A stretch of DNA of 64,000 bases from Acarospora socialis. Taxonomy: Eukaryota > Ascomycota > Lecanoromycetes > Acarosporales > Acarosporaceae. Below the pieces are notes generated by a model. It was not told the origin of the DNA, did not search any database, and saw only the letters and a list, made by a program, of their open reading frames with translations. The stretch lies in NCBI GenBank assembly GCA_025617375.2, contig JAMYGW020000001.1, positions 62,001 to 126,000 of the forward strand. Direction: 5' to 3'. The position numbers were made by a program, and so were the translations under genes. Positions 3,078-53,337 of this stretch are shown here, piece by piece (position 1 is the first letter of the stretch; every line of letters starts with the position of its first letter).

Positions 3078-4378
3078 GAAGGAAGGGACATATGATAGAC
3101 CAGAAAGTGATTCAGGCTAACTAGGCACTCGCACCGCTTATACCTAGGTACGACGTTCCACCGCGGATGAAGTTATATTTCCATACGGCGCCAAGGGACA
3201 TCCTGTGCGACGCTAACCTCCACCTTACACGTGCCCATCAAGGTGCTTGTCGTGGACTTTAGTACACCGTGTACCAGTCGAACAAGAGCTAGAACGGCTT
3301 CAATCTGAACTCGGCGAGAAATTCGGTCTCAGTACGCGAATAGCCAAGACATTGATAAAAACTCATGGACCTGCAACGTGCAGCGCGCCTAGAGCTCATC
3401 ATACGGCGATTCAATGATTCTCCAGCCGTCGAGAGCGATCCGTGATAGCGAACCCCTCCAGCCAGAAGCACGATAGAGCAGTTTAAACGCCACTACAAAA
3501 ACTACCGTTTGGTAGCGACGAAGAAGAACCCTTCACAGAAATAGCAGGGTAGTGGCAGGTCTTCTTGAAGTAATCAAACAATCCGGGCGCCCAAGTTTTC
3601 AAGGGAAGAGATGAGGAGAGAATATCACCATTGATAAATTATGATACCCTGTACCTTCCACTTTGTACAGATTGTATTTTCGACATGTACTTTGGAACCA
3701 GTACATATTACTGTATACTAGGTTACTATAAAGTATGCCTGGTGAAAGAGACGGAAATGGCGATGCCTTTCCAACATGGAAGCTCGTAAGTATTGAGATT
3801 TTACTGCTGGGAATCATATGTTATTTCTTTCTCTGCCGGAAACATTCAGATTAATTACGCAAGATTGTGAGGAAATTGTAGTTCATAGCCGTAGTTTGGT
3901 CATAATCACACACTTCCACAAGCCAGCAAGTAGGTGGCAGAATCCTCTGTTCAGTAACGGTTATGAGGGCCATCCACGGCTTCGTCGCGTTCCAAACAAG
4001 TTAGTGCCCACAACGCGTCAAAATCCACACCTCAAACCTCACTAAGAAGTTTAGCCGAGCCTACTTTCCAGCAACCACAACCGAGGCAGCTTTTACCGAC
4101 ACCCGAGAATTTGACGACCGTACAAAGTCGGCTAACGCGATGGGGAAGGATGTTTACAAGACATCGCTGGGTCGGAACGTGAGTTAACACAAGTCTTTCA
4201 CTGTTCACACTTTCACTGTCTACAGTTTGCGAGTTGGAATCAGTGATACATATATAACATACTGGCTCTTTCCCTTTCCATTTCCATTTTCTTTCCTATA
4301 TATATATAAGCGGGCAGCAGAGGTACTTGACTGAGTTGATTCTCACTCTATACATAGGCGTGGAAGCAGTTAAAAGCA
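3078..4378. other. Intergenic region upstream of haspin
   Basis: 1.3 kb without a convincing gene. A short plus-strand frame around 3255-3413 (VEQELERLQSELGEKFGLS) looks protein-like but has no ATG, no clear splice partners and stops quickly. Close to the haspin start there is an AT-rich stretch with a TATATATATAAG run near 4300, a plausible core promoter. No tRNA or repeat was recognised. Confidence 0.4.
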
Positions 4379-6830
4379 ATGCCCGGAAAACTCAAGGTGT
4401 ACGGCAAGAAAGGCGGCGCGGTGGTGTCGGATGTTTTCGGGAAGTTGTCGGACTCGCCTCTGAAGAAAGATGGAAATGGTTATCAAAGCTTTGAGAGCGC
4501 CGAGGCCCTTGTGTCGACAGATGCTGCGGATGTTGGAGGTAATCGACGTCGCCGTGCTCCGCTCACCTCCAAGGGTTCGAACGCTCGTCTTGCTAAACGC
4601 GAGAACGGAAAGCTCGACGATGGAGAGCGGTTGGCGTTTGATCACGCGTCAGGGCAAATCTCAAGTGAGCATCTTGGAGAGTTGGCAGATGATGACCAAT
4701 CACTTCAAGACCGACTCGAGCGTTCGACAGAGGTCTCGGAGGAGACTGGAGCGGAACTCTTAGGAAACATGACGGAGGCGATGTCTTCTGCACCAAGGAG
4801 CAGCAGTGACGAAGAAAGCAACGTCGCTGAACTGGAGGGGCTACTACGCAACACCCGACTCGAGTCGCCACCCGGAAGCTTGAGTCGAAACGCCACGGAT
4901 AGAGCAGAAGAAGCGACAGGCGCGACGGGCTTTACAGCACGAGAGAGGGTTTCTAGATTCGCAAGAGGACGGCGTGCGGCATCAAACAGAGAGTCCGAAG
5001 ATTCCCGTATCTCACAGCACGAGAACTACGAGCTTGATGAGAGGGTAGATGTCCAGCAACACGGGCTATCAGGGAAACCCAAGAAAAGAACCGTGAAGAA
5101 GGAATTCAACAATTCGGAAGAGGATTTGCCTTTGCTAAGACGAGAGAGCAACTTGAGCGCTACGGAATCTGAATCTGAAGCATCGACCGCGAGCTGGGCA
5201 GCATCTTCCATCGGACGAAGAGCTAGAAATCGAGACAGCAACATCATAGAGATCAGGTTAGGAGAAGGTACAAATCTGCCACCGCCAGAAGTTACATATC
5301 TCTCCAAAGAAAACGGCACTATGAGAACCACAAGAGCGCCCCTCAGAGAACCGGCGCCGGAAGTGTCCTATCTGTCGACCGAAAACGGTATTATGAGAAC
5401 CCGGAGAGGGCCAGTCAGAGCACCAGTCACACGCCCGGCAGCTTCCCCCAACGCACCAATCGTCAATACAGAGATGTTAGAGTACCTTTCACCACTTCTG
5501 GAGGTTGCTAAAGGCCGTCTTGACGATGCACCAGTCTGCAGCTTCCGCGACTGGGTCGACCGCCTTTGTCAGCAGAACTACGAGCTCGTGAAGGTCGGCG
5601 AGGGCTCTTTCGGTGAGACATATCGCACAAAGATCACGCCCAATGGTTCAACGACTCCAGTGCTTGGAAAGACTATCTTCAAGGTCATCCCTCTACGAGC
5701 CAGAAGCGGAGTCGGATCGAGAAACTTTGTACCTGTTGTTGAAGCCGTGTCCGAGATCGAGCTATTGGCGAAGATGACGTCGATTCCCGGATTCACTATA
5801 TATCAAGAGGCCTATGTCGTGTGCGGCAGTCAACCACCACAAATCGTTAGCGCGTGTGACGCATATATCCATTCACCGAATCATCGCCCAAGTGACCGCC
5901 CGTTCGTTAAGAGATACATCCCCACTCAGTTATGGGTTGTGATTGAGATGCAGTATGCGGGTGTCGATCTCGAACGATTCCGCCTGAGTTCGCACTGGCA
6001 GACGTGGGATATCTTCTGGAGAGCGGCCATAGCCCTGGCGAGGGCTGAAGTCGTTGCAAGGTTCGAGGTAAGTCGTCTCAGAGCTCTGAGTGGAACCGAG
6101 CTGACTTGGATGTGAAACTGCAGCACCGCGACCTGCACCTGGGAAATGTGTGCGTCCAAGCCAACGCCGCCAACGACACGATGGACGGGCCCCTCCAGCT
6201 CACCAAGGCGGAGGCCGAGGAGGTCAAACTCGGCTTCAGCGGCGTCGAGGTGACGCTGATTGACTACACCCTCTCCCGGGCGGACATCGCCCCAGGCCAT
6301 GTGGCCTTCAACGACCTGCGGCACGGGGTGGGTGTCTGCGACCGGGAAGGGGGTGGCGGGCAGTTCGAGACGTATCGCAGGTATGTTGTCCTCAACCATT
6401 ACTACCTTCTCATTTGCACCAGCTGACAGGAATTTTCAGGATGCGTGCAGAGGTCTTCCTGATGGACCCAACAGGCAATTATGCCGATGTGGGCGCGGGG
6501 CTGGCAAGTGCGGGGGCGGGCTGGAAACAGTACCGCCCCAGAACCAACCTCCTATGGTTGCACTTCCTCTTGTCGGAGATCCGCCAGCTCTCCAAAGAGC
6601 AGATGGAAGACCGCCCGCGCCTGCAGCGGCTGCCCGGGTCCGACCCGAATGAGGTCGGATCCGAGGCACGGGCCCGAAGGTTGTGCAAGTCATTGGGCGA
6701 CAAGCTGAACACAACCTTGAAGCTGTTGGACCCTGAAACCTTAACGCGGTCTGGCCTCTACTCTGCCGGTGATCTGGTGCAGTACGCGGTGACGAAAGGC
6801 TGGCTAAACGAAGGTGATTTGGAGAATTGA
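4379..6830 (+). CDS. haspin: Haspin-type serine/threonine protein kinase, 778 aa, three exons
   Basis: Exons 4379-6067, 6124-6380 and 6440-6830; introns of 56 and 59 bp (GTAAGT..CAG, GTATGT..CAG) keep the frame. The N-terminal 370 residues are Ser/Arg/Glu-rich and disordered. The kinase domain starts near residue 395. It has a glycine loop GEGSFGETY at 407-415, a lysine at about 435 (FKVIPL), the catalytic loop HRDLHLGNV at 564-572, and DYT in place of DFG at 610-612. The DYT and the haspin-style C-lobe identify the family. Haspin phosphorylates histone H3 Thr3 and helps place the chromosomal passenger complex at centromeres (family knowledge). The catalytic loop is split by intron 1, so a one-exon reading loses the kinase core. 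An internal tandem repeat lies just before the domain. The start is ATG at 4379, about 75 bp after a TATA-like run. Confidence 0.93.
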
Positions 6831-46973: not shown

Positions 46974-49035
46974 ATGAAACGTAAACTCAACGATGATGAC
47001 GTCCCAATTGGCGTTGCTTCTGAGGCGTCAAACAATATGGTGCCGACTTTTTTGGACCTTGGACTGGACGCGCGACTCTTGCAAGCAATAACGAAGCAGA
47101 ACTTCGTGAAGCCTACCCTAGTGCAATCGAAAGCAATACCACTAGCATTAGAAGGCAAAGATATCTTAGGTGAGTTTACGGCCTGCTCCAACGCGCCTTG
47201 ATCTTGTTTAACAGGAGTATTACTGTGCAGCCCGGGCAAAGACTGGTTCTGGCAAGACTGCGGCATACGTGCTTCCCATCCTCCAGGGGGTTCTCAAACA
47301 GAAAGCTGTAAGCTTACGTATGATTAGCCGCGGGATCATACTGACACTGTGCTCCAGGCTTCGCATGCCCCCGCAAACGTCTCCGCACTCATTTTAGTAC
47401 CCACCAGAGAACTCGCAGAACAAGTCTCCAAAGCGGTGGCTTCCTTCTCTACTTTCTGCGCCAAGGATATCCGGGTCGTCAACCTTACACATAAGGTGTC
47501 CGATGCTGTCCAACGATCACTTCTCGCCGAGTCTCCTGATATTGTCATTGCTACGCCGGCTCGTGCTTCGCTAAACCTCAACACCTCCGCTCTGTCTCTC
47601 GAGAACTTAACGTACCTGGTTATAGATGAGGCAGATCTGGTGTTGTCTTACGGCTACGAAGAGGATCTACAGAGCGTCTCAAAAACAGTACCTAAGGGCG
47701 TCCAGACCTTCCTGATGAGTGCAACCCTAACAACAGAGGTAGAGAAGATCAAGGGACTCTTTTGCAGAAATCCCGTGGTTCTCAAGCTCGAGGAGCGTGA
47801 CGATGACGGGGGCGGCGTCAGTCAATATGTTGTAAGGTATACTCTTCTCCCAATCTCCCCTAATCTCCTCGTGTTGGTAACTAAGGCGTGGTAGATGCGC
47901 CGAGGATGAGAAGTTTCTGTTGGTATATGTCATCTTCAAGCTAAAGCTAATCAAAGGCAAATGCATTGTTTTCGTTGCGGATATCGATCGATGTTATCGC
48001 TTGAAGCTGTTCCTGGAACAATTCGGCACCAGAAGCTGTGTCTTGAACTCGGAGCTACCAATAAACTCCCGCACACATGTTGTGGAAGAGTTCAACAAGA
48101 ACGTCTACGATATCATAATAGCTACCGATGAGAACGATATGATTAGGGAGGAAGCACCTAGCCAGGGTTCCCCTAGTGGGAAGAGCAACGGTGGAAGCCT
48201 TTGGGAAAAGCCAGCATCGGAGCCACGTAAGGCAACAGTAGCTGATGAGGACGCCAAACCTATGAGAGAACAAGATGGGATGGACGAAATTCACGACATA
48301 ATGGAATCTACCAAGAAGAAGCGGAAACACGTAAAGAAGGACAAGGAGTACGGAATTTCGCGTGGCATAGATTTCCAGGATGTCTCTTGCGTTATCAACT
48401 TCGATTTGCCGACAACATCTAGATCATACGTTCATCGGATTGGAAGAACTGCGCGGGCTGGAAAGACCGGAATGGCGCTTTCCTTTGTTGTACCTACGGA
48501 ACTGTACCGCAAACACAAGCCAACTTCCTCCCCAACCGCAAAGCATGATGAAGCCGTCCTCGCACAGATCATCAATTTTCAGGTCAAGAAGGGCAATGAA
48601 ATTAAACCATACGAGTTTGACATGAAGCAAGTGGACGCGTTCCGCTATCGCATGAGCGATGCATTACGCGCTGTGACGCGGACTGCCGTTCGGGAGGCAC
48701 GTACACGAGAGATAAGGCAAGAACTACTCAAGAGTGAAAAGCTCAAGCGTCATTTTGAAGAGAATCCTGATGATCTGCGCCACTTGAGGCATGATGTGGA
48801 GGTGAGAGCGGCAAGAGTCCAGCCCCATCTAAAACATGTGCCGGAATATTTGTTGCCTACGAATGGGAGGAGAGGATTTACGAACGGCGATCCAGGGTTT
48901 GTAGGACTGAAGAAGGTCGGGGAGAATAGGATAAGGAAAGCAAGGATGCATAAGCGGATGAAAGACAGAGGGAAACTGGCTGTAGGGAAGAAACAGGATC
49001 CTTTGAAAACATTCAATGCGAGAGGGCGAAGATGA
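46974..49035 (+). CDS. DBP9: DEAD-box RNA helicase Dbp9, 630 aa, four exons
   Basis: Exons 46974-47169, 47231-47307, 47358-47836 and 47895-49035; introns of 61, 50 and 58 bp. Helicase motifs in order: Q-motif ([12 protein letters not shown]), [13 protein letters not shown] (Walker A, starting at the intron 1 junction), [32 protein letters not shown] (DEAD box), MSATL, a C-terminal core with [17 protein letters not shown], and [11 protein letters not shown]. Between motifs V and VI lies a charged Lys-rich insert (about residues 350-400), which is a Dbp9 trait, and the C-terminus is basic. Yeast Dbp9 is a nucleolar factor for 60S ribosomal subunit assembly with RNA and DNA unwinding activity. 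Followed on the same strand, 300 bp away, by the Argonaute gene. Confidence 0.94.
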
Positions 49036-49337: not shown

Positions 49338-52300
49338 ATGCCACCCAAGGAAGCTCGTCAAGCCAGGAAAAGGTCCCCCGAGAAATCAAAAGGAGAACCA
49401 AGTCAGCAGATACAAGAACAGCCGCATCAGGCTCACCACCTACAGACCCATCCAACCTCAAGCTCGACCCTTTTCCCCACTGAAGTTGCAGAAGGTCTCA
49501 CCAAGGGTGCTTCTATTACCGCCAAGTCATTGAACTGTGGTCAACGAACAGATACTGATACCAGAGCCACAGCCTTGTCCATTCCTCCTCCCTCAACTCA
49601 CCACGAATCGAGTTCGTTTGGTACCAGAAAGTCACGAAAAGGCCAGAGACTCGGAAGTTCCGCTTCCACCGCTCGGTCACCTACCCTTTCTTCTTCTGCT
49701 AAAGCTACAAGCAAGCCATTCCCTCGTGTGATAAACGCCTTAGCCTTGCCTGCTGCAACCCTGTCGAGTCCAGCTTTGTTAGCTGTTGAATCCTCATCGT
49801 CAACAGAGAGGATCACAAGCATACCTTTCGCCCACGGGTCAAAGGCACCAGAATCAGCTGGCAACATTCGGTCACAGTCCCTCGAAGATCTTGAGGCACT
49901 CCTCCATAAGGGTGTAGTTGACGGCGACCGCGGAAGTAATCTGGGGACAGATACCGAGCTTGACAAACCTCAGGCCCTCGACAGCGAGGGACTGCCCACC
50001 AGCAGCATGTCCGAATCATCAGCGTTCTTGCCGCTGCAGTCTAACTGTTACCGTATCGAATTCGGTGGAACCATTTACAAGTATGGAATTATCTGCGAAC
50101 CGGCAAATGTTCTTGCAAAGAGAGAAAGAAAATTGGTTGAGAAGGCTTTCCTTCAAGAGCTCTCCATTGGACATCAGAAGGGTAGCATAGCCTTCATCGA
50201 CGGACATACTTTCCTGACATCGAAGCTATACTACGGTCTAGAGAATTACGCCTTTGTCGGTACAATCAACCGCCGGCTCGACAAGCCTGATCAATCATTC
50301 AGGCCCGTCTTCCTCAAACATGGCAATGAAGAAGCCGGTAAAGTTACCAAGGTGTGGAGCGCCTTCGTTAAAGGAACCTGCCTGGACAACGAATTATTAC
50401 AGAAGTGCATGCCTTCCCGCAACGAACAGGCCAAACTCGGCTCTCAACTCATAGCGGTCCGCGCATTCGCTGAAGTAGAGGAGTTTGATCTCGCAACTCT
50501 TCGCTCCCTCCTTAACAAAGTGGGAAGTCAGTCGGAGATAGCCAGGGTCACTGACGCTTTAGGTTGCCTCCTCTTCAGGGGTAATGCAGGAGGAGATACG
50601 CCCACTTTGTCCAACTCTCTCTCGCTGGTTGTCCACGGCAGCAAAGTATTCGACTTCACTTTGCCTGGCGACTATCTGGGGTATGGTCTAGAATTACGAA
50701 GTGGCGCCAACAACGCAATACGAACGGCCCCCGAGAAACTCTTGCGTGCTGTACTACCCTGTCACCGGATATTCTATAGGCCTGTCACAGTCTCCACTTT
50801 CATCGAAGAGCATCTTCCTGGCTCTATCTTCACGTCGACCGAAGTGATAGCTACCGTCCAAGCTCTCCTGAGGGGCTTGAAAGTTCGAATACAACGCACG
50901 GACAGAGAGCCCGGGATTGCTACAATCTCTGGAATCGCGAAGACCACGCCTGGGGAGACCTTCTTCGATATGCGGAATGCTGATGAGTGTCGAGTCATAA
51001 GTGTTCTGGAATACTTCAGCAGAAACAAAGGTATTCGGGTAACACACTCCGACCACCCTTGTTTGGTCATTGGCTCCGAAGAGAGACCGCAATACCTCCC
51101 CACCTGTGTCTGCGAGATCATCCAAGGGCAGAGTTTCCGACACCCCGTTCCGAAAGAGGCGCTCATGAAGGTGGACAGGCTCAAAATTATCAATGCCCAC
51201 AAGGTCAACCCGTCTTCGGGTCTTTCTGGTGACGGAAATCTGATAGATCTTATCAGTCAAGCGTCATCGCTCGGTGCGCTGTCACTGCACGACGGTGAAG
51301 CCGGACACCTTTCTGTGCTTCCAGAGCAAGTCAACTGTCAGAAGGTGATCAAACCTGCGGCATATGTCCCTCTAACCTTAAACACCCATCTCAAGGCCAA
51401 GTTCAGAGTTGTGTTCATCGAACTGGGCAATGCCCCAGCTTTGTCGAAAACCGTGGAAGTGTTCCTAAATATCTTTAAGCGCAAGCTACGGGACCTAATA
51501 AAACTCGGAGACTCACTCTCGGACTGGAGAACTCACACCTTGAAGCAGTCTGCTTCTATCGAGAGTTGGCAGAAAGACCTGGATGGTGTTTTGAACCCAC
51601 CAATCGACCCAGAAACGACTGATGTTGCCTGGGGCGGATCGCCCAGCCTGCCACGACCGTTCATTGTTGCCTTCATCGAGGGTGGTCCCGAGAACCAGCA
51701 CATCCATAGTAAGATTAAGCATCTCTGCGACCTGGGACTTGGTATTCAGAGCTGTTGCGTCAATCTGTCAACCTTGGACAAGATGCACGAACAAAACACG
51801 GACAATGGCATTGATCGCTATGCTTCGTCGCTGGTTCGCAAGATGTTTGCCAAACTTCAAGCTGGCCTTGATGACAAGGACCCTGACGATATACCTGTAC
51901 CACCGATCCCCAATGCAACTTTGCTTGTGGGTGCACACGTGGTCGAGGTGTCCGCGAAACCGTTGACGACGAAGGAGCCAGAAGTCAGTTTTTGGCCCCA
52001 AGTGTATTGCATTACACTCTCTTCTAAGCCGATTGGTACCAATGGCACGTACAAAATCACCACTGTGCTTAAAAGGGCTACCGATGCAGTAAGTCCCTTC
52101 TCTGTCATACTCTGAGAAAGAGTAAGCGGCATCTGTTGGGTACTAATTCCGCGTAGGAGAAATTAGGGTTAGATATCCTTCTGAGCGCGCATCTTGACGA
52201 GCATGAGAAGCCTCGCGTGCAACTCAGCACCCTTTCTCGGCTTGTGTTCTATCGCTCTGGGGCTATTGCTCCGAACAGAGAAAGTACACCGAGAAAGCCA

Positions 52301-53337
52301 GCCACTCATGCTGAGTCTCAGCCAGAGGACCGACTGCCAAGGGATGCCATTTCAAGCCGTCCGGACGTCAGTCCTGCCCCGAAGGGTAGGGTTGGATCCT
52401 TGACGACGGGATCATCTGAATCTCAGCATACTAAGGCTACAAATGAAGCCCAGACTTCCTGGAAAATTACCGAGAAGGATGGCATAACCATTGTCGCTGC
52501 GCCTAGTCGAAGTACTCGACGCATTGCAACAGATATGTCCCAAGGACGGGATAAAATGAATGATGGCTGCAGCAGACCGTTACCGAACACCCCTAGTCTG
52601 CCACCTTACGCGGAGACAGACCCTCCAAAACCGCGTACCAGGTTCTTGGAAACAGCGGAGCGTGAGAATCTTTTTAGAAAAGAGACAGAACGCCTAGAGT
52701 CAGCAATCAGTTCCAGATACCCATGTGCCAGGCTCTTCTACATCTCCGTCAGTTGGAACACCAAATTAAGGCTTTACAATACCACCGGCCAACCTCTGGT
52801 GAAAGATCCTCCTGGACCCGACAAGGTTCACAAGAACATCAGCTGGATCGCCTCTGATGGCATCACCAGCCCTAACGACAACGAGTGGTTTATGCTGAAG
52901 GAACTGACTGGCACAGGTAGCCAGAAGCCGTTGCAGCTCAGTTGCCATAGCCTGGCTTCACCTGGTGAACCGAGCAGCTTGGAAAATGATATGAGGAAGA
53001 ACTATAAAGATGTAAGTTGCTTCCTTACCGCTCCCCTCACCGAGTAATATGTACTTACACTCGCTGGAACCGGCAGACATTCGATGCGTCCTACGACTAC
53101 CCACCAGGTCTTGACCGCTGTAAAATGGTAGCACCAGTGCACTTCGCTCGCCTCGTAAGCCTATCCTCATCTAAGTCAATTCGATTACCCTGAGCGCTAA
53201 CATTCCTTTCTCCTGTTCTGCAGGCCACAAAACGTGCATTGCTGCTGATGGATCGGAACGCTCATACTTCGGATACGGCCCCTTTCAAGTTACGTCCTGT
53301 GAACCCGGCGTTGAGGGACACACTTTATTACGTCTGA
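49338..53337 (+). CDS. Divergent Argonaute-like protein with degenerate slicer site, 1265 aa, four exons
   Basis: Exons 49338-52088, 52157-53011, 53077-53154 and 53224-53337; introns of 68, 65 and 69 bp. Residues 1-230 are Ser/Thr/Pro-rich and disordered. An Argonaute N domain follows, then PAZ at about 495-620 (ALLRGLKVRI, VISVLEYFSRN, PCLVIGSEERPQYLPTCVCE, IIQGQSF), MID and PIWI (about 770-1265: PFIVAFIEGGPENQHIHSKI). The C-terminus VNPALRDTLYYV resembles the usual Argonaute end. Catalytic DEDX positions are changed. GADVTHP becomes GAHVVEV (His867 for Asp), FYRDGVSE becomes FYRSGAIA (Ser951 for Asp), and YYAHLA becomes HFARLA (Arg1227 for His). Glu918 may remain. About 100 low-complexity residues are inserted after FYRSG. 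Slicing is unlikely; guide binding may persist. A degenerate paralogue of QDE-2-type proteins is the best guess. Confidence 0.88.

What the first reader, a model, noticed from the sequence alone, without database searches (positions are those of the whole stretch)
49338..53337. Argonaute-like protein whose slicer site is replaced at three of four positions
Seen: PAZ and PIWI sequence is clear, but the first catalytic Asp (GADVTHP in active Argonautes) is His867, the second (YRDG) is Ser951, and the final His/Asp (YYAHLA) is Arg1227. The frame is intact across four exons with good splice sites, so the gene is probably expressed and selected, not a pseudogene. Inference: a non-cleaving Argonaute that may bind small RNAs, compete with the active paralogue, or have a new role.
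Basis: partly seen in the sequence, partly recalled or inferred. Interest (0 to 1): 0.85.

Follow-up and report, generated by a model that had tools for sequence, protein, structure and literature searches.

The report
Slicer-dead fifth Argonaute in a fungus
A fungal genome that carries four Argonautes with intact cutting sites also carries a fifth, very divergent one whose RNA-cutting site has been replaced, so it probably acts, if it acts through RNA at all, by binding rather than cutting.

Summary
Window 49338-53337 (+) is an intact four-exon gene for 1265 residues with a Pfam PAZ match over cut-off and a complete, very divergent PIWI domain. At three catalytic positions it has His867, Ser951 and Arg1227, placed alike by two aligners. 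The fourth, the glutamate finger, is unresolved: Glu918 by spacing, Asp923 by a zero-confidence alignment. Four other Argonautes in the genome have intact DEDD or DEDH, one a QDE-2 relative, so the loss is specific to this gene.

The charged 5'-phosphate pocket is kept (K794, K835, K839, R1232), with Tyr to His790. Loss of slicing is near certain; small-RNA binding is plausible but unproven.

No relative was found, but those collections hold prokaryotes and viruses, so conservation is untested. Slicer-dead Argonautes are known in animals and oomycetes; my paper searches showed none described in fungi.

The parts
49338..53337 (+). fifth Argonaute gene, four exons (49338-52088, 52157-53011, 53077-53154, 53224-53337), 1265 aa
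49338..50027 (+). N-terminal low-complexity tail, residues 1-230, disordered-type make-up
   Evidence: P+S+T 0.35, hydrophobic 0.17; boundary approximate
50028..50657 (+). N and L1 region, residues about 231-440 (by alignment only; no Pfam ArgoN or ArgoL1 match)
   Evidence: MAFFT alignment; Pfam lists only PAZ and Piwi
50658..51152 (+). PAZ region, residues about 441-605
   Evidence: Pfam PAZ 42.1 bits at residues 508-601; plant AGO10 aligned over 446-605, E 1.2e-10
51648..51917 (+). MID region with 5'-phosphate pocket: H790 (Y529 of human AGO2), K794 (K533), K835 (K566), K839 (K570)
   Evidence: the pocket residues of human AGO2 are recalled, YKQK motif as in PMC6284064 section 15
51918..53334 (+). 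PIWI domain, residues about 861-1265, full length but divergent
   Evidence: Pfam Piwi 28.4 bits, 41.1 without the insert; hhalign
51936..51938 (+). codon CAC, His867 in place of the first catalytic Asp
52157..52159 (+). codon GAG, Glu918, candidate glutamate finger, first codon of exon 2
   Evidence: spacing to the third site 33 residues as in C10, C6 and C7; not placed there by MAFFT or hhalign
52256..52258 (+). codon TCT, Ser951 in place of the second catalytic Asp (third of the tetrad)
52274..52648 (+). 125-residue insert (residues 957-1081) just after the third catalytic site, disordered-type make-up; ends approximate
   Evidence: P+S+T 0.36, hydrophobic 0.15; GC at second codon position 0.608
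53149..53151 (+). codon CGC, Arg1227 in place of the catalytic His/Asp, second-last codon of exon 3
53233..53235 (+). codon CGT, Arg1232, equivalent of human AGO2 R812
53012..53076 (+). intron 2, at the position and phase of the last intron of paralogues C10 and C6
   Evidence: the C6 acceptor was chosen by me among several for its fit
52089..52156 (+). intron 1; one codon from an intron of paralogue C6, same phase, if Glu918 is the glutamate finger; ends in TAG followed by GAG (tandem acceptor)

Best explanation
The gene encodes a fifth, fast-diverging Argonaute that cannot slice. Shown: the frame is intact, PAZ and PIWI are recognisable, three of the four catalytic residues are replaced while all four paralogues found in the genome keep theirs, and the lysine/arginine cluster that anchors a guide's 5' phosphate is kept. 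Inferred: it still takes up small RNAs by their ends (PAZ plus the MID lysine pocket), cannot cut a target because neither metal site can form, and works by occupancy: recruiting partners through its disordered tail and the insert at the mouth of the dead active site, or taking small RNAs away from the four tetrad-intact paralogues. In mode of action it would resemble human AGO4 or the non-slicing worm Argonautes fed by RdRP products.
For: Catalytic replacements at H867, S951 and R1227 by two alignment methods with a reversed-sequence control. His867 and Ser951 lie well inside exons 1 and 2; Arg1227 is the second-last codon of exon 3, before a consensus GTAAGC donor, and none of the three introns can be retained. 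Four paralogues keep DEDD (C10, C6) or DEDH (C3, C7). Three RdRP loci and two loci each with two RNase III matches suggest small RNAs can be made. The frame is open for 1265 codons although identity to any of six comparators is only 16-19% in MID-PIWI; simulated neutral change of 0.05 per site already gives about 6 stops. Codon choice matches the four paralogues better than base composition predicts (z 5.6; a weak measure, see the full report). 5'-phosphate pocket: K533, K566, K570 and R812 equivalents all kept against 16 of 48 invariant residues kept overall (hypergeometric P 0.009 for these four, 0.037 with Y529, which is His). PAZ scores 42.1 bits, third of five in this genome (others 25.8-64.2), while PIWI is about 200 bits lower than in each paralogue. 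Human AGO4, which lacks slicer activity, has Gly and Arg at the third and fourth positions (passage of PMC10772731); Ser and Arg here is alike.
Against: Thirty-two of 48 invariant MID-PIWI residues are changed or missing, among them Y529, K709, R710, H711, R792 and Y804, which I recall as guide contacts, so ordinary seed display may be gone. PAZ residues recalled as 3'-end contacts look partly replaced by eye in the alignment. No transcript, no orthologue, no usable structure model (mean pLDDT 33.9). The pocket list was tested after I had looked at the alignment, so its P values are soft. In the Phytophthora survey, deviation from the MID motif was read as a possible sign of a pseudogene (PMC6284064 section 15).
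Confidence: 0.52

Rival explanations
1. An Argonaute fold that has left RNA silencing: it no longer binds guide RNA and serves as a protein scaffold or has taken a new role, its PIWI domain kept only for shape.
For: 16 of 48 invariant MID-PIWI residues kept, the KRHH stretch replaced by WNTK, a 125-residue insert beside the active site, Tyr of the 5' pocket changed to His.
Against: The four charged 5'-phosphate residues are kept above the background rate, and PAZ is kept at a level like the paralogues'.
Confidence: 0.28
2. A decaying duplicate or recent pseudogene that has lost constraint but not yet its frame.
For: Very long branch (about 10 changes per column); many conserved residues gone; no transcript evidence.
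Against: No stop or frameshift in 1265 codons and consensus-like splice sites; codon choice like the paralogues'. Divergence of this depth without constraint would have left many stops; 8.5% of simulated genes are still stop-free at 0.02 neutral changes per site and 0.5% at 0.05, so only a recent loss of constraint fits.
Confidence: 0.14
3. It cuts RNA with a rearranged set of residues.
For: An acidic finger residue may be kept (Glu918 by spacing; Asp923 by a zero-confidence alignment), and His, Ser, Arg are not inert side chains.
Against: The two-metal mechanism uses the aspartates; human AGO4 with two of four changed lacks slicer activity (PMC10772731, passage).
Confidence: 0.03
4. The substitutions are an artefact of wrong exon joins or assembly errors.
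For: Single assembly, no transcripts; Arg1227 lies one codon from an exon join.
Against: His867 and Ser951 lie inside exons; the three codons (CAC, TCT, CGC) differ from the nearest active-type codons by at least four bases in all; intron 2 coincides with paralogue introns.
Confidence: 0.03

Closest known systems
QDE-2-type fungal Argonaute (paralogue C10 in this genome; Neurospora QDE-2, PDB 2yhb)
   Same: PAZ-MID-PIWI order; last-intron position and phase of paralogue C10 shared by intron 2; 5'-phosphate lysines kept
   Different: 19% identity to C10 and 17% to QDE-2 in MID-PIWI, catalytic D/D/D replaced, 125-residue insert, 16 of 48 invariant residues kept
Paralogue C6 of the same genome (DEDD)
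   Same: Last intron shared, and an intron within one codon of intron 1 of this gene if Glu918 is the glutamate finger, same phase
   Different: C6 keeps all four catalytic residues and PIWI at 237.9 bits; 19% identity
Human AGO4
   Same: Third and fourth catalytic residues replaced, the fourth by Arg in both (PMC10772731 passage)
   Different: AGO4 keeps its first Asp (recalled); here it is His, and the rest of PIWI is far more changed
Caenorhabditis WAGO Argonautes
   Same: Non-slicing Argonautes beside RdRP-made small RNAs (passages of PMC4245922; their lack of the tetrad is implied there and recalled)
   Different: No sequence link tested; a likeness of mode only
Phytophthora tandem-repeat Argonautes AGO6, AGO8, AGO9
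   Same: Degraded tetrads such as E-D-S-R, C-D-D-R, N-D-G-R (PMC6284064 section 15)
   Different: Oomycete, tandem arrays; this is a single gene in a fungus

Membership tests
Eukaryotic Argonaute | PAZ domain | tested here: met
   Pfam PF02170 42.1 bits, cut-off 28.8
Eukaryotic Argonaute | full-length PIWI domain | tested here: met
   28.4 bits as it stands, just under cut-off 28.9; 41.1 bits over positions 2-297 of 302 with the insert removed; hhalign E 2.9e-9 insert removed, but only probability 55%, E 1.2e-4 over the C-terminal 144 columns with it
Eukaryotic Argonaute | N, L1, L2 and MID domains by Pfam | tested here: inconclusive
   No Pfam match at E up to 1, though alignable by MAFFT; of the four paralogues, L1 and L2 match in 4, ArgoN in 3 (C7 model lacks that part), ArgoMid over cut-off in 2
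Slicing Argonaute | DEDD/DEDH tetrad | tested here: not met
   H867, S951, R1227; second position unresolved, Glu918 or Asp923
Small-RNA-binding Argonaute | 5'-phosphate pocket Y-K-Q-K plus C-terminal Arg | tested here: inconclusive
   H790, K794, C806, K835 (and K839), R1232; the Gln is also Val in C10, C6 and QDE-2
Small-RNA-binding Argonaute | bound small RNAs | not testable with these tools
   needs immunoprecipitation
WAGO clade | common descent with nematode WAGOs | not tested
   no WAGO sequence used; the intron shared with C10 and C6 argues for a fungal origin

The most novel reading that the evidence does not exclude
A dedicated non-slicing Argonaute of filamentous fungi: it holds small RNAs through PAZ and the MID lysine pocket, cannot cut, and uses a disordered insert at the dead active site to recruit partners or regulate the four tetrad-intact paralogues, a fungal counterpart of worm WAGOs that arose independently.
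Probability: 0.25. Interest if true: 0.72.

Novelty: new variant of a known kind. Interest (0 to 1): 0.47.

Why it matters
Fungal Argonautes have been reported to keep the first two residues of the DDH motif well (PMC4290597 section 6). A fungus with four tetrad-intact Argonautes and one that has lost the tetrad but kept its 5'-phosphate lysines offers a test of what an Argonaute is for when it cannot cut, in a kind of organism where genes can usually be deleted one by one. If it proves to be loaded, non-slicing effectors have arisen in fungi as in nematodes; if not, it shows how an Argonaute leaves the pathway.

Tried and rejected
Orthologue search: three scans (genome contigs with exon 1; genome contigs with exon 2; viral contigs with exon 1) gave 26, 26 and 15 pattern matches and 0 confirmed relatives. 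These collections hold prokaryotes and viruses, so this says nothing about fungi. A second gene of the same kind in the own genome: none found; exon 1 finds itself and a chance-level match in C6 (E 0.25), exon 2 only itself.

Structure: AlphaFold2 on residues 229-917 alone gave mean pLDDT 33.9 and was not used; the second structure job and the fold searches were not used. The spliced protein was not submitted because it is not a letter-for-letter reading of the window.

Tree: seven MID-PIWI sequences put this gene on a branch of about 10 changes per column; its place is unresolved, so intron positions, not the tree, are the evidence for kinship.

The first full MAFFT alignment put the insert in the wrong place and misaligned YRSG; it was replaced by alignments without the insert and checked by hhalign with and without it. 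With the insert left in, hhalign aligned only the C-terminal 144 columns (probability 55%, E 1.2e-4), which cover Arg1227 but not His867 or Ser951.

Glutamate finger: MAFFT puts Pro898 there, hhalign Asp923 at confidence 0, spacing points to Glu918. In the count of 48 invariant residues it stands as lost; if Glu918 is the finger, 17 are kept, not 16.

Rejected: that the insert is an unrecognised intron (375 bases in frame, no stop in the joined frame, second-position GC 0.608; the recognised introns of this gene are 65-69 bases).

Full report
Check of the observation. Exons 49338-52088, 52157-53011, 53077-53154 and 53224-53337 join in phase 0 to 3798 bases with no stop before the last codon. 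Introns are 68, 65 and 69 bases, GT-AG, and each contains an in-frame stop if retained. His867, Ser951 and Arg1227 are as reported. Their codons, CAC, TCT and CGC, differ from the nearest codons for D, D and H/D by at least four bases in all, so sequencing error is unlikely. His867 and Ser951 lie inside exons; Arg1227 is the second-last codon of exon 3, the one place where a different donor could change the reading.

What it is. Pfam finds PAZ at 42.1 bits and PIWI at 28.4 bits, the latter just under its cut-off of 28.9. A 125-residue insert (residues 957-1081) explains part of that: without it PIWI scores 41.1 bits over positions 2-297 of 302. hhalign of the insert-free sequence against a profile of six other Argonautes gives E 2.9e-9 and probability 96%; the reversed sequence gives probability 0.17%; with the insert left in only the C-terminal 144 columns align (probability 55%). 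Both hhalign and MAFFT place H867 on the first Asp, S951 on the Asp of YRDG and R1227 on the His/Asp of YYAH/D. The glutamate finger is unresolved: Glu918 by spacing (33 residues before the third site, as in C10, C6 and C7; 32-36 in the six comparators), Pro898 by MAFFT, Asp923 by hhalign at confidence 0.

The genome. The window lies in a 31.1 Mb assembly of 38 contigs. By its introns and its QDE-2 relative it is a filamentous fungus; from the ITS I would guess a dothideomycete, from memory and with low confidence. PIWI matches fall at four other loci. I joined their exons by hand: C10 has DEDD and Neurospora QDE-2 as its best solved relative (319 bits); C6 has DEDD; C3 and C7 have DEDH. RdRP matches fall at three loci and paired RNase III domains, as in Dicer, at two. 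So the small-RNA pathway looks complete and the loss is particular to the gene in the window.

Kinship. Intron 2 of this gene sits at the position and phase of the last intron of C10 and C6, and intron 1 is one codon from an intron of C6, also phase 0, provided that Glu918 is the glutamate finger. The acceptor of C6's last intron was chosen by me for its fit to the motif, so C10 is the cleaner witness. This supports both the gene model and descent from a QDE-2-like fungal Argonaute. The tree cannot place it (branch of about 10 changes per column).

How changed it is. Identity in MID-PIWI (insert left out) is 16-19% to each of six comparators, which are 29-46% identical among themselves. Of 48 columns invariant in all six (four paralogues, QDE-2, human AGO2), this protein keeps 16, or 17 if Glu918 is the finger. 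The lost ones include D597, D669, K709, R710, H711, R792 and Y804 in human AGO2 numbering. Kept are K533, K566, K570 and R812, which I recall as the 5'-phosphate cluster; Y529 is His790. Four of four charged residues kept against 16 of 48 has hypergeometric P 0.009, or 0.037 if Y529 is counted; I had seen the alignment before testing the set, so this is suggestive only. The MID motif is given as Y-K-(S/T)Q-(K)K in PMC6284064 section 15, where deviating oomycete proteins are called incomplete or possible pseudogenes. PAZ at 42.1 bits ranks third of five in this genome (C3 64.2, C7 52.5, C10 35.9, C6 25.8), whereas PIWI, at 28.4 or 41.1, lies about 200 bits below the paralogues (237.7-270.7). 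No Pfam match for ArgoN, ArgoL1, ArgoL2 or ArgoMid was found here, although L1 and L2 match in all four paralogues and ArgoN in three.

Is it a living gene? The frame is open over 1265 codons; in simulation, neutral change of 0.05 per site gives on average 6.3 stops and 0.5% stop-free genes, and of 0.02 gives 8.5% stop-free. Codon choice is closer to that of the four paralogues than base composition predicts (z 5.6 for the whole gene; 4.7, 2.9 and 1.2 for exon 1, exon 2 and exons 3-4; the N tail and insert alone are not significant at 0.7 and 1.3; a neighbouring helicase exon scores only 0.9, so the measure is weak). An old pseudogene is very unlikely; a recent one is not excluded. There is no transcript evidence.

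How it probably works. Without the two aspartates and the His/Asp neither metal of the slicer reaction is likely to be held; human AGO4, with Gly and Arg at positions three and four, is explained the same way (passage of PMC10772731). That it does not slice is therefore close to certain (my estimate 0.95). That it still takes up small RNAs rests on the kept pocket and PAZ and is about an even bet. The insert opens directly after the YRSG strand, at what I infer to be the mouth of the dead site, and has the make-up of the N-terminal tail (P+S+T 0.36 and 0.35, hydrophobic 0.15 and 0.17); I infer a disordered, partner-binding or regulatory segment.

Comparison with the known. Slicer-dead Argonautes are an established kind: human AGO4, nematode WAGOs (PMC4245922 passages; partly recalled), and oomycete AGO8/AGO9 carry degraded tetrads such as E-D-S-R (PMC6284064 section 15). 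For fungi, a survey of 34 species from several kingdoms says the first two catalytic residues of the DDH motif are well conserved and that other variants are much more common in animals (PMC4290597 section 6; its supplementary alignment was not read, so fungal exceptions may be listed there). Eight paper searches (listings; one search was about worms), plus passages or sections of six papers, showed me no fungal Argonaute described as having lost the tetrad; the library is open-access only, so this is not proof. I rate it a new variant of a known kind.

Limits. No fungal orthologues, transcripts or usable structure could be had; conservation of the loss across species, the single most telling test, is open.

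Noticed in passing
52154-52159: Intron 1 ends in a tandem acceptor, TAG then GAG; use of the second would remove exactly Glu918, the candidate glutamate finger.
   Followed up: partly
4358-6115: Open frame with a weak Haspin-like kinase match (38 bits, cut-off 25, profile 125-228 of 364), a possible divergent Haspin.
   Followed up: no
L011 (own genome C7:182000-189500): Paralogue C7 has intact DEDH but I found no clean open N-terminal part; it may be truncated or have introns I missed.
   Followed up: partly
L012 (own genome C6:1227500-1235000): Paralogue C6 has YRDW in place of YRDG next to the third catalytic Asp, and a Cys-rich N-terminal stretch WCRECQACRGHNTDSCP.
   Followed up: no
L033 (own genome C28:19500-22500), about 1385-1595 on the - strand: Extra sequence of about 200 bases near the 3' end of the 18S rRNA gene, before ITS1, perhaps a group I-type insertion (judged by eye).
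   Followed up: no
47881-49035: Last exon of a helicase-type gene (Helicase_C 74 bits) directly upstream, same strand.
   Followed up: partly
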